Source of the DNA: Antennarius striatus
Lineage: Eukaryota; Chordata; Actinopteri; Lophiiformes; Antennariidae
Direction of reading: 5' to 3'
NCBI RefSeq assembly: GCF_040054535.1
Contig: NC_090780.1
Coordinates: forward strand, 11,684,501 to 11,748,500
Length of the DNA: 64,000 nt
Positions 56,306 to 62,834 of this stretch are shown piece by piece. Each line of letters opens with the position of its first letter. Positions within the stretch are counted from its first letter, which is position 1. The notes under the pieces were generated by a model. It did no database searches, was not told where the DNA came from, and was given only the letters and a program-made list of their open reading frames with translations. A program made the position numbers and the translations under genes.

Positions 56306-57872
56306 TTATGACACTGAAGACACTTCTGTCTTGCTGGCAGACACTGATGTCTCATCCTCCACAATGCCACCCATTCCAATGGTGCCCAGCATGCAGTTAC
56401 GGAACTGAGAAAGAGAGGAAAGACAGCACATTCAAAAAGGAATGCACAATTCACGGCTCAAAAAAGGAGACAAATAAAGTTAGAAACATGCAAACCGACC
56501 TGTTTGTTCATGAGCACATAAATAACGGGATTGTACAGAGCAGAGCTCTTTGCAAAGAAGGCAGGGATAGCTGCTGTCAGGGCAGTGAAGGAAGCTCCCT
56601 TGTTCAAGAAGATCCAAGCAGCAAAACTGGCATATGGTACCCAAGCTACCAGGAAGCCAAACACCATCAGGACACACATTCGTGTTACTTCCCTCTCAGC
56701 CTTCTGGGTGGACTCTGATTCCTGCTGCTGAGCTGCAGCCTGAAGGGTTTGATCGAATAAATGATACTCAACCTCATGTAAATTCATTCAACAAGTTGAT
56801 GTTAAAGGTAAACAAATAAAACAAGACTTGAATAAAAACTTCACTTACGGCTTTAACAGTCAACACAAGGCTTCCATAAGTGAAGAAAATGAGGAAGACG
56901 GGGATGAAGAAGTGGACAGTAAACATGTACATGACGTAAGATTCATTGTTGAAGCCTGGAGCTAGAGTGTAGTAGTCTGGTCCACAGGAGCACTGCATTC
57001 CCTCTGGAAGGTACCTGTGTCAGGTTTAAATACACATCACCAGTACAATTACTATTACTAAAGGAAATACTAAGGTTTACTGTCTTTCTCTTTCTCTCGT
57101 ACACTGGTTTCACTCAATGTCTGTGAAAATCAAATATTTTCTTTGACACCATTTCCACATTGTTGCTCATGGTGGGAAATTAATTGCTCAATTTCTGTTA
57201 GGCAAAGCTGTTCTATAGAATTACCTGGACCAACCGGCCAGTGGAGGGGCAGCACAAGCCAGAGCCATGATCCAGGTGAAAAGAACTCCAGCTCCTGCAT
57301 GAGTTCCAGTAAACTTGAAGCTTCCCATGGGTTTGCAGACAACAATGTACCTTTCAACAGCTAAGACAACCAGTGACCAGAGGGCAACTTCGCCTGTTGG
57401 AGAAAGATGAGAGAAATTTTTATGGTGTCTTGTTCTTTTTAAGATACGGACGATGCAATTTAGATGAAATGTCTTTGTTTTTCTAACCTCCAAGTGTGGC
57501 CATGAATCCCTCAACAGCGCAGGCAGTGGCTCCAAGAATGAAATAACCATTAATAGCAGATGTGATGGTGATGGTGAATCCAAAAGAGCACATGATCAGT
57601 CCAGCCACAGCCAAGTTGACCAGGATGTAGTTGAGAGGTTGCCGCAGCTTCTTGTTCTGAGCCGTTACAATCAATGTCAGAGCATTGATGGGAGTTCCAG
57701 TGCAGATAAGGAAGAACATGTAGAAAGCCAGAAGCTTGAACATGATGGGATCTGCCAAATAGTACTGTGGGTATTCAAAAGGACTCCGAACAACCCCAGT
57801 CCTGTTAGACATGGGAATGTAGAAGTTCTTTCCCTCCGTGCCATTGGGCTCAATTCCTCCTTCCCAAACCAT
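56306..57872 (-). CDS. rh2a: RH2A green-sensitive cone opsin, minus-strand copy
   Basis: Five coding exons: 57488-57872 (385 bp), 57225-57393 (169), 56849-57014 (166), 56500-56739 (240) and 56306-56404 (99). This is the vertebrate visual opsin exon pattern, and it encodes 352 aa. The start [20 protein letters not shown] is typical of percomorph RH2A; an upstream in-frame ATG adds no conserved residues. Visible features are NGT and NRT sequons (N10, N23), counterion E121 (bovine 113), E130 (bovine 122, the long-wave RH2 state), Cys118 for the conserved disulfide, ERY at 142-144, the FFAKSSA retinal-binding Lys304 (bovine 296), NPVIY and a Ser/Thr-rich tail ending TEVSSVS. The product is a retinal-binding GPCR of cone outer segments coupling to transducin. 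The encoded protein is identical to that of the plus-strand copy. Confidence 0.96.
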
Positions 57873-57940
57873 GTTCCTTACTCTGTTCTTCCGTTGAATC
57901 CAACAGTGATTATGTGTGCAAGAATCTATGACCAATGTGG

Positions 57941-57987
57941 TTTTATACCCACTGTTAACCTTAATTTAAACAGCCAAAATTGGATTA
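57941..57987 (-). promoter_or_regulatory. rh2 promoter elements, minus-strand copy
   Basis: A TATAAAA box lies at 57947-57941, about 70 bases before the start codon. A TAATCC (OTX/CRX-type) site is at 57982-57987, about 35 bases further upstream. Another TAATCC lies at about 58071. CRX/OTX sites are standard in photoreceptor promoters; their use here is inferred. Confidence 0.55.
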
Positions 57988-58489
57988 CACAACTGCAGAA
58001 TTCAAATGCGGCTTAATACTAACAAGAACGGTTAGCACTTGATGCAGTTAGTTGCAATTTGGAATTCTCTTAATCCTTATCACATAATAGTAATTAGGGT
58101 CAGTAGGCAGGTTTCGGATGTTATCTCTAGTAAATGTACTAATCAAGAAAATCAAGATAATGAAAATTGTTTATATACCATTTTCTGTATTTGATTTTAT
58201 AGTATATATTTGTTGATCAATGTATACTGCCTTACATGAAATGCTATATCATTGAGCAAATATGACTTTCAAGGAAGAGTTTCATTGTAATTAACATTTA
58301 TTTTTAATTTTTATTTTAAATTTTACTTTAAAATTTAAAACTCATTTAAAATGTACTTATAAATATAAAATAACATTATTTAAAATGTATTTTAAATAAG
58401 GGGATACTGGCCAAGACAGGCCACCAAAAACAGAGGGACAATTTATAATTGTCAGTTTGATCTCAATTATAAAAAACACAATAGTAGCC

Positions 58490-58890
58490 ATTAATCAGAA
58501 TCAGAATCAAAATCTTTTCCCTTAGGAGGAAATAGCTTTTTGTTACATTTGTTCTGTTATTACTCTGAAAAAAAAGTAAAGGAGATCATAGATAATTAAG
58601 AGAGTAAATTATAATATGATTTATAGATGACTAAGATAATAAATTGATAATAAAGAATAATAAACAAACATATGTACAGAAATACACATATACTGCTGCT
58701 TTATTCCTCCTCATCACTACATGTCAAGGTGAGGCAATGTACAGCTTGACGGCTACAGGCAGGAAAGATTTCCTATGGTGTGCAGTAGTGTGTTTAGGAA
58801 GCCTTTTTCTATTTCTGAACAAACTCCTTTGTCCCATCAGTGTTCCGTACAGTTGTTGCAACTCAAGATAAGGTACAGTTTCTTTAAATG
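58490..58890 (-). mobile_element. LINE 3' UTR/ORF end remnant
   Basis: AATCAGAATCAGAATCAAAATC at the low-coordinate end, then CCCTTAGGAGGAAATAGC and further on GACGGCTACAGGCAGGAAAG, then ATTTCCTATGG, are the reverse complement of the 3' region of a common fish LINE. It is non-coding and decayed, and lies within the region between the two opsins. Confidence 0.55.
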
Positions 58891-60841: not shown

Positions 60842-60981
60842 ACACACACACACACACACACACACACACACACACACACACACACACACACACACACACA
60901 CACACACACACACACACACACACACACACACACACACACACACACACACACACACACACACACACACACACACACACACAC
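60842..60981 (+). repeat. (CA)n microsatellite, longest in window
   Basis: An uninterrupted run of about 70 AC units, 200 bases upstream of the plus-strand rh2 TATA box. Confidence 0.98.
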
Positions 60982-61140
60982 TCATCAATTTTAAAAAAAG
61001 GTTAAGAAGGTGGTATTAGCTGCACTCTTAACATTTTATCCTCACCTCACTTTAACATATGACACAAAGCAGACATTACTGACCAATGTTTTCTCTAATT
61101 CAATTATCAATTTAACCTGAGATGCCCTTACAATATCCCC

Positions 61141-61187
61141 TTAATCTAATTATGGCAGTATAAGATAAAAGTCAGGAATGTATAAAA
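61141..61187 (+). promoter_or_regulatory. rh2 promoter elements, plus-strand copy
   Basis: CCTTAATCTAATTATGG at about 61138-61154 contains a TAATCT (OTX/CRX-like) and a TAATTA homeobox site. A TATAAAA box follows at 61181-61187, about 81 bases before the start codon. This is the same order of elements as in the minus-strand copy, although the surrounding sequence is different. Confidence 0.55.
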
Positions 61188-61267
61188 CAGGCCCCAGATT
61201 GAAGTTTGCGGAGCTGGTGAATTAGTCTGCTGCCACACACTAATTTAACCTCTTTGAAGTGTTTAAC

Positions 61268-62834
61268 ATGGTTTGGGAAGGAGGAATTGAGCCCAATGGC
61301 ACGGAGGGAAAGAACTTCTACATTCCCATGTCTAACAGGACTGGGGTTGTTCGGAGTCCTTTTGAATACCCACAGTACTATTTGGCAGATCCCATCATGT
61401 TCAAGCTTCTGGCTTTCTACATGTTCTTCCTTATCTGCACTGGAACTCCCATCAATGCTCTGACATTGATTGTAACGGCTCAGAACAAGAAGCTGCGGCA
61501 ACCTCTCAACTACATCCTGGTCAACTTGGCTGTGGCTGGACTGATCATGTGCTCTTTTGGATTCACCATCACCATCACATCTGCTATTAATGGTTATTTC
61601 ATTCTTGGAGCCACTGCCTGCGCTGTTGAGGGATTCATGGCCACACTTGGAGGTTAGAAAAACAAAGACATTTCATCTAAATTGTATCGTCTGTATCTTA
61701 AAAAGAACAAGACACCATAAAAATTTCTCTCATCTTTCTCCAACAGGCGAAGTTGCCCTCTGGTCACTGGTTGTCTTAGCTGTTGAAAGGTACATTGTTG
61801 TCTGCAAACCCATGGGAAGCTTCAAGTTTACTGGAACTCATGCAGGAGCTGGAGTTCTTTTCACCTGGATCATGGCTCTGGCTTGTGCTGCCCCTCCACT
61901 GGCCGGTTGGTCCAGGTAATTCTATAGAACAGCTTTGCCTAACAGAAATTGAGCAATTAATTTCCCACCATGAGCAACAATGTGGAAATGGTGTCAAAGA
62001 AAATATTTGATTTTCACAGACATTGAGTGAAACCAGTGTACGAGAGAAAGAGAAAGACAGTAAACCTTAGTATTTCCTTTAGTAATAGTAATTGTACTGG
62101 TGATGTGTATTTAAACCTGACACAGGTACCTTCCAGAGGGAATGCAGTGCTCCTGTGGACCAGACTACTACACTCTAGCTCCAGGCTTCAACAATGAATC
62201 TTACGTCATGTACATGTTTACTGTCCACTTCTTCATCCCCGTCTTCCTCATTTTCTTCACTTATGGAAGCCTTGTGTTGACTGTTAAAGCCGTAAGTGAA
62301 GTTTTTATTCAAGTCTTGTTTTATTTGTTTACCTTTAACATCAACTTGTTGAATGAATTTACATGAGGTTGAGTATCATTTATTCGATCAAACCCTTCAG
62401 GCTGCAGCTCAGCAGCAGGAATCAGAGTCCACCCAGAAGGCTGAGAGAGAAGTAACACGAATGTGTGTCCTGATGGTGTTTGGCTTCCTGGTAGCTTGGG
62501 TACCATATGCCAGTTTTGCTGCTTGGATCTTCTTGAACAAGGGAGCTTCCTTCACTGCCCTGACAGCAGCTATCCCTGCCTTCTTTGCAAAGAGCTCTGC
62601 TCTGTACAATCCCGTTATTTATGTGCTCATGAACAAACAGGTCGGTTTGCATGTTTCCAACTTTATTTGTCTCCTTTTTTGAGCCGTGAATTATGCATTC
62701 CTTTTTTAATGTGCTGTCTTTCCTCTCTTTCTCAGTTTCGTAACTGCATGCTGGGCACCATTGGAATGGGTGGCATTGTGGAGGATGAGACATCAGTGTC
62801 TGCCAGCAAGACAGAAGTGTCTTCTGTGTCTTAA
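61268..62834 (+). CDS. rh2a: RH2A green-sensitive cone opsin, plus-strand copy
   Basis: Coding exons 61268-61652, 61747-61915, 62126-62291, 62401-62640 and 62736-62834 have the same lengths as in the inverted copy. They encode the same 352-aa protein: [14 protein letters not shown] start, E121 counterion, E130 (bovine E122), ERY 142-144, Lys304, NPVIY and the VSSVS end. By reading I find only silent exon differences from the other copy, one in exon 4 (AGA/AGG) and three in exon 5 (TTT/TTC and two TCT/TCA). Introns 2 and 3 appear identical, and introns 1 and 4 differ at about two and three bases. The gene sits head-to-head with its partner, 3.4 kb apart. An in-frame ATG nine bases upstream (MFN…) is not conserved, so 61268 is chosen. 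Confidence 0.96.

What the first reader, a model, noticed from the sequence alone, without database searches (positions are those of the whole stretch)
56306..62834. Head-to-head RH2A opsin pair homogenised from start codon to stop codon
Both genes are intact and encode the same 352-aa protein. By eye the near-identity starts at the ATG and ends at the stop codon: exons 1-3 and introns 2-3 match, intron 1 differs at about two bases, exon 4 at one, intron 4 at three and exon 5 at three. The bases just before the ATG and after the stop do not align. Identity in introns cannot come from protein-level selection, so recent gene conversion (or a very recent event bounded exactly at the coding span) is likely. 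The rise in differences towards exon 5 looks like the edge of a conversion tract. Inverted opsin copies also make the locus prone to inversion.
Basis: partly seen in the sequence, partly recalled or inferred. Interest (0 to 1): 0.88.

Follow-up and report, generated by a model that had tools for sequence, protein, structure and literature searches.

The report
Twin green-opsin genes kept nearly identical
Two fish green-light opsin genes lie back to back and are almost identical from start codon to stop codon, introns included, while the DNA around them differs, best explained by one copy having overwritten the other; fish opsin genes are known to do this, and here it covers the whole gene.

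Summary
Copy A (minus, 57872..56306) and copy B (plus, 61268..62834) are both 1567 bp, gap-free, 9 substitutions apart, and encode the same 352-aa green cone opsin; the 4 coding differences are all synonymous. The alignment runs from 3 bp before the ATG to 5 bp after the stop; outside, 100-bp blocks match at 20-35 of 100 in register. Differences are clustered: 3 in ~654 silent sites before position 1391, 6 in ~102 from there on (p = 0.0027).

Best explanation: an older divergent pair with separate promoters, overwritten by recent inter-copy gene conversion, probably in more than one tract. A short block upstream of both ATGs (18 of 22 bases, then a TATA box) suggests old shared promoters and speaks against a brand-new duplication, though the signal fades over longer flanks.

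Not categorically new: head-to-head RH2A pairs, and an RH2A pair converted through exons 2-5 with a diverged 5' UTR, are published for cichlids. What differs in degree is homogenisation of the whole body with all four introns. Donor, age, sister species and long reads could not be tested.

The parts
56306..57872 (-). RH2A-type opsin gene, copy A, ATG to stop, five exons
   Evidence: Pfam 7tm_1 and Rhodopsin_N; rhodopsin chains in the PDB
61268..62834 (+). RH2A-type opsin gene, copy B, ATG to stop, five exons, same protein as copy A
56301..57875 (-). arm 1 of the 1575-bp near-identical inverted repeat
   Evidence: BLAST, 99.365% to arm 2; inverted-repeat search
61265..62839 (+). arm 2 of the inverted repeat
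57876..61264 (.). 3389-bp spacer holding both divergent 5' regions; contains an (AC)72 microsatellite at 60838-60981
57941..57987 (-). copy A proximal promoter-like block: starts at -115 from the ATG, TATAAA at -75
   Evidence: motif positions and alignment; first 22 bases 18 of 22 identical to copy B's block
61142..61187 (+). copy B proximal promoter-like block: starts at -126 from the ATG, TATAAA at -87
56306..56482 (-). less homogenised 3' end of copy A (gene positions 1391-1567, most of intron 4 and exon 5) with 6 of the 9 differences; partner in copy B is 62658-62834 (+)
   Evidence: change-point test
48378..48797 (+). ORF holding a synaptophysin-family (SYNPR-like) exon; SYNPR is a published flank of teleost RH2 arrays
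   Evidence: synaptophysin chains, E = 7.6e-10, residues 14-47; no Pfam match at E 0.001; SYNPR flank in PMC3116502 (passage)

Best explanation
The two genes are older inverted duplicates of a green cone opsin, each with its own promoter and 3' end. Recent non-allelic homologous recombination between the inverted arms (gene conversion) copied one gene body over the other. Conversion needs homology, so it runs through the exons and the short introns held between them and halts where the flanks have already diverged, which places the ends at the ATG and the stop codon. More than one event is suggested: a younger tract over positions 1 to about 1390 and an older one over the 3' end. Shown: the identity pattern, its edges, the clustering, the synonymous coding differences. 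Inferred: conversion as the cause, the anchoring by exons, age, number of events; direction is unknown.
For: 5 differences in 508 bp of intron, 0 in introns 2 and 3 (319 bp). Outside the body matches drop to 20-35 of 100 and no BLAST match continues from it. The proximal promoters share a collinear block, 18 of 22 bases; 0 of 1101 GC-filtered window segments (1500 drawn, the rest dropped by the filter) reach 18 against copy B's 150 bp, and 0 of 500 shuffles reach the 150-bp alignment score. Differences are clustered, p = 0.0027. Published: head-to-head RH2A pair in African cichlids, with introns 1 and 4 highly similar in Nile tilapia; Midas cichlid rh2a pair identical in exons 2-5 after conversion with 5' UTR and exon 1 varying; conversion commoner in coding than non-coding parts of livebearer lws.
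Against: No sister-species or population sequence could be compared, so grouping by species in the body and by position in the flanks is untested. The promoter signal is weaker at 120 and 200 bp and absent at 300 and 400 bp and might reflect shared functional motifs. The two-tract reading rests on 9 differences. The 3' flanks show no trace of common ancestry.
Confidence: 0.85

Rival explanations
1. A very recent inverted duplication of just the gene body, inserted near the original, with breakpoints by chance at the start and stop codons.
For: It would also give a near-identical body with unrelated flanks.
Against: Both breakpoints would have to fall within 5 bp of the coding ends; the new copy would have landed downstream of a TATA box and a block resembling the other copy's promoter; a single event does not predict clustered differences (p = 0.0027).
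Confidence: 0.07
2. Assembly artefact: one gene body's consensus was written, wholly or partly, into both places.
For: A 1.6-kb repeat at 99.4% is hard for short reads, and no reads were available here.
Against: Nine differences between the copies, different DNA on both sides of both copies, no N in the window, and an arrangement that matches the published head-to-head pair. A partial artefact that erased some true differences remains possible.
Confidence: 0.06
3. Old duplicates kept alike by purifying selection alone, on protein and on splicing or regulatory motifs in introns (the alternative that PMC3514295 raises for tilapia introns).
For: The proteins are identical and all four coding differences are synonymous.
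Against: 3 differences in about 654 silent sites up to position 1390 and identical introns 2 and 3 are beyond what protein constraint gives, while the flanks have lost alignment.
Confidence: 0.02

Closest known systems
Midas cichlid (Amphilophus) rh2a-alpha / rh2a-beta pair
   Same: Green opsin pair said to have undergone conversion; exons 2-5 identical, 5' UTR varying (passage in PMC6121847, citing Torres-Dowdall et al. 2017, which I have not seen).
   Different: There exon 1 varies and exons 2-5 are identical; here exon 1 is identical and the variation lies in introns 1 and 4 and exons 4 and 5. The passage says nothing of introns.
African cichlid RH2a-alpha / RH2a-beta (Nile tilapia)
   Same: Head-to-head RH2A pair in an array flanked by SLC6A13-like and SYNPR; introns 1 and 4 highly similar between copies.
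   Different: Coding sequences group by paralog, not by species, and introns 2 and 3 are relatively divergent there; here introns 2 and 3 and the protein are identical.
Livebearer LWS tandem inverted duplicates
   Same: Inverted opsin duplicates with conversion; in Jenynsia the original 3' end is said to be left unconverted; conversion commoner in coding than non-coding parts.
   Different: LWS, not RH2; tail-to-tail in swordtail, head-to-head here.

Membership tests
RH2A green cone opsin | Rhodopsin-family 7TM opsin with retinal-binding lysine, counterion and disulfide cysteines | tested here: met
   7tm_1 and Rhodopsin_N; K296, E113, C110, C187 in bovine numbering (offset of 8 read from the alignment; roles of these residues recalled)
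RH2A green cone opsin | E122 rather than the Q122 of RH2B, with S97, M207, A292 | tested here: met
   S97, E122, M207, A292; PMC5686071 passages name this state for Rh2 and E122Q for the RH2B ancestor, but also report E122Q in some RH2A genes, so the residue alone is not proof
RH2A green cone opsin | Groups with RH2A in a gene tree | not testable with these tools
   Protein database search switched off; no fish sequences on hand
RH2A green cone opsin | Lies beside SYNPR in the RH2 array | tested here: met
   Synaptophysin-family exon 48378-48797, synteny in PMC3116502. RH2B and the SLC6A13 side were not seen; no other opsin lies in the window
Paralog pair under gene conversion | Gene body much more alike than flanks, neutral sites included | tested here: met
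Paralog pair under gene conversion | Uneven differences along the body (tract edge) | tested here: met
   Change-point at 1391, p = 0.0027 over 20,000 placements; 6 differences within 174 bp, p = 0.0046; only 9 differences in all
Paralog pair under gene conversion | Copies cluster by species in the body and by position in the flanks | not testable with these tools
   No sister-species DNA on hand; own-genome search did not complete

The most novel reading that the evidence does not exclude
One pigment under two independent promoters: repeated arm-to-arm conversion keeps the whole coding unit, introns included, as a single shared sequence, while selection or lost homology keeps the two regulatory ends separate, so that the species runs one green pigment in two expression programmes. 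The same inverted arms could also flip the spacer and swap the promoters between the two 3' ends.
Probability: 0.3. Interest if true: 0.5.

Novelty: new member of a known kind. Interest (0 to 1): 0.38.

Why it matters
A pair identical in protein and nearly so in introns, yet with separate 5' and 3' ends, is a clean natural case for asking what stops conversion at gene ends and whether opsin duplicates can be kept for regulation rather than for a new colour sensitivity. It also warns that expression studies must use the UTRs to tell the copies apart, and that trees built from the coding sequence would misdate the duplication.

Tried and rejected
Recent body-only duplication: rejected as the main reading because of the breakpoints at both coding ends and the shared promoter block. 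Protein constraint alone: rejected because introns 2 and 3 are identical. GC-biased conversion: of the 7 differences of GC-versus-AT type copy A carries the GC base in 6, binomial p = 0.125, no conclusion. Donor and recipient: not decidable without an outgroup. Other opsin copies: tblastn of the protein with E up to 1 hit only these two places in the window. Mobile-element seeding: the spacer has one other match in the window (147 bp at 75.5% to 25782-25926) and the tested 3' flanks (54000-56300 and 62840-64000) none, so nothing supports it. A first exon search with assumed exon lengths printed nothing; splice sites were then read from the translations. The self-BLAST ended in a script error and was repeated. 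Musilova and Cortesi 2023 and Sandkam et al. 2017 are not held and are known here only through citing papers. Of 12 papers I saw passages by term search (PMC3514295, PMC3116502, PMC11874681, PMC5686071, PMC4763219, PMC2732921, PMC7553354, PMC4281148, PMC9110347, PMC6121847, PMC5865164, PMC3087554), plus part 1 of 3 of the Results of PMC3514295; none was read whole. PMC4763219, PMC9110347 and PMC5865164 gave nothing that bears on the verdict; PMC4281148 says conversion cannot be ruled out for cod RH2A.

Full report
What is there. Two complete five-exon opsin genes lie head to head, copy A on the minus strand at 57872..56306 and copy B on the plus strand at 61268..62834, with 3389 bp between the near-identical arms. 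Each is 1567 bp, with exons of 385, 169, 166, 240 and 99 bp and introns of 94, 210, 109 and 95 bp, all GT..AG, and both give the same 352-aa protein. The protein matches rhodopsin chains over nearly its whole length; its best Pfam matches are 7tm_1 and Rhodopsin_N. With bovine numbering taken from the alignment it has K296, E113, C110 and C187, and S97, E122, M207 and A292. A passage of PMC5686071 gives S97, E122, M207 and A292 as the state at four key tuning sites in its account of Rh2, and E122Q as a change in the common ancestor of Rh2B, though it also reports E122Q in some Rh2A genes. I take this to be an RH2A-type green pigment; a gene tree could not be made. About 7.5 kb from copy A's stop lies a synaptophysin-family exon, in keeping with SYNPR as a flank of RH2 arrays (passage of PMC3116502). 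No other opsin lies in the window.

The identity. The two bodies align without gaps with nine substitutions: two in intron 1, one in exon 4, three in intron 4, three in exon 5. All four codon differences are synonymous. The BLAST alignment starts 3 bp before the ATG and ends 5 bp after the stop. In fixed register, 100-bp blocks inside the body have 97-100 matches, the block straddling the stop 80, and the 19 blocks outside 20-35.

Clustering of differences. On silent sites (intron bases plus synonymous fractions), positions 1-1390 have 3 differences in about 654 (0.46%, Poisson 95% interval 0.09-1.3%) and 1391-1567 have 6 in about 102 (5.9%, 2.2-12.8%). A test that searches over break points gives p = 0.0027 in 20,000 random placements; a scan for six differences within 174 bp gives p = 0.0046. 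This supports the edge of a younger tract in intron 4, but it rests on nine differences.

Flanks. If copy B were a fresh duplicate cut at the coding ends, its upstream DNA should be unrelated to copy A's promoter. Instead the proximal 150 bp align better than all 500 dinucleotide shuffles. The core is a 22-bp ungapped block, 18 of 22 identical, at -115 in A and -126 in B, followed by a TATA box at -75 and -87. None of 1101 window segments that passed a GC filter (1500 drawn) reached 18 of 22 against copy B's 150 bp; the best had 17. Against this, 120 and 200 bp gave 4 and 5 of 500 shuffles, 300 and 400 bp gave 95 and 66 of 500, and shared photoreceptor motifs (TAATCC-type sites, recalled as Crx/Otx-like) could add to the match. 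The 3' flanks show no similarity at 100, 200, 400 or 800 bp.

How it most likely works. An older head-to-head pair diverged in its flanks. Recombination between the inverted arms then copied one body over the other. Constrained exons act as anchors and the short introns between them are carried along; beyond the ATG and the stop there is no second anchor, so copying ends where homology ends. This would place the edges at the coding ends without any special boundary signal. It is inference; direction and date are unknown. Selection against mixing the two promoters could add to the sharp edge, but nothing here tests it.

Comparison with what is known. [quoted passage not shown] PMC6121847 (passages) says that rh2a-alpha and rh2a-beta of Midas cichlids underwent conversion and that only the 5' UTR and first exon vary, the rest of the CDS being identical. 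[quoted passage not shown] PMC2732921 (passages) proposes conversion between LWS genes that are tandem inverted duplicates, leaving an original 3' end. PMC11874681 (passages) speaks of extensive and frequent conversion between rh2 genes, citing Musilova and Cortesi 2023, which is not held. The case in hand is a further and more complete example: introns and exons together, protein identical. In seven answered paper searches, of which I saw the listed top rows and passages of 12 papers, I met no report of an RH2A pair homogenised over the whole body with introns; the library lacks most subscription journals, so this does not show that none exists.

Limits. The species is unknown. No reads, outgroup or expression data were available.

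Noticed in passing
7710-8921 (+), 26076-27160 (-), 31846-32882 (+), 36926-37222 and 38532-38999 (-): Related retrotransposon fragments, 83-91% alike pairwise; ORFs at 7691-8260 and 26297-27127 match the reverse transcriptase family RVT_1.
   Followed up: partly
24096-25103 (-): 335-aa ORF with an ALKBH8_N Pfam match and an RVT_1 match below Pfam's cut-off; probably another LINE remnant (inference).
   Followed up: partly
98-502 (-) and 21742-22086 (-): ORFs that look like exons of CADPS (name recalled). Neither has a Pfam match, and the second has no solved-structure match.
   Followed up: partly
60838-60981: (AC)72 microsatellite about 290 bp upstream of copy B's ATG, a likely length-variable site between the two promoters.
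   Followed up: no
34389-35184 and 49147-49881: Two inverted copies of an unidentified repeat, 79-82% alike, the second about 350 bp past the SYNPR-like ORF.
   Followed up: no
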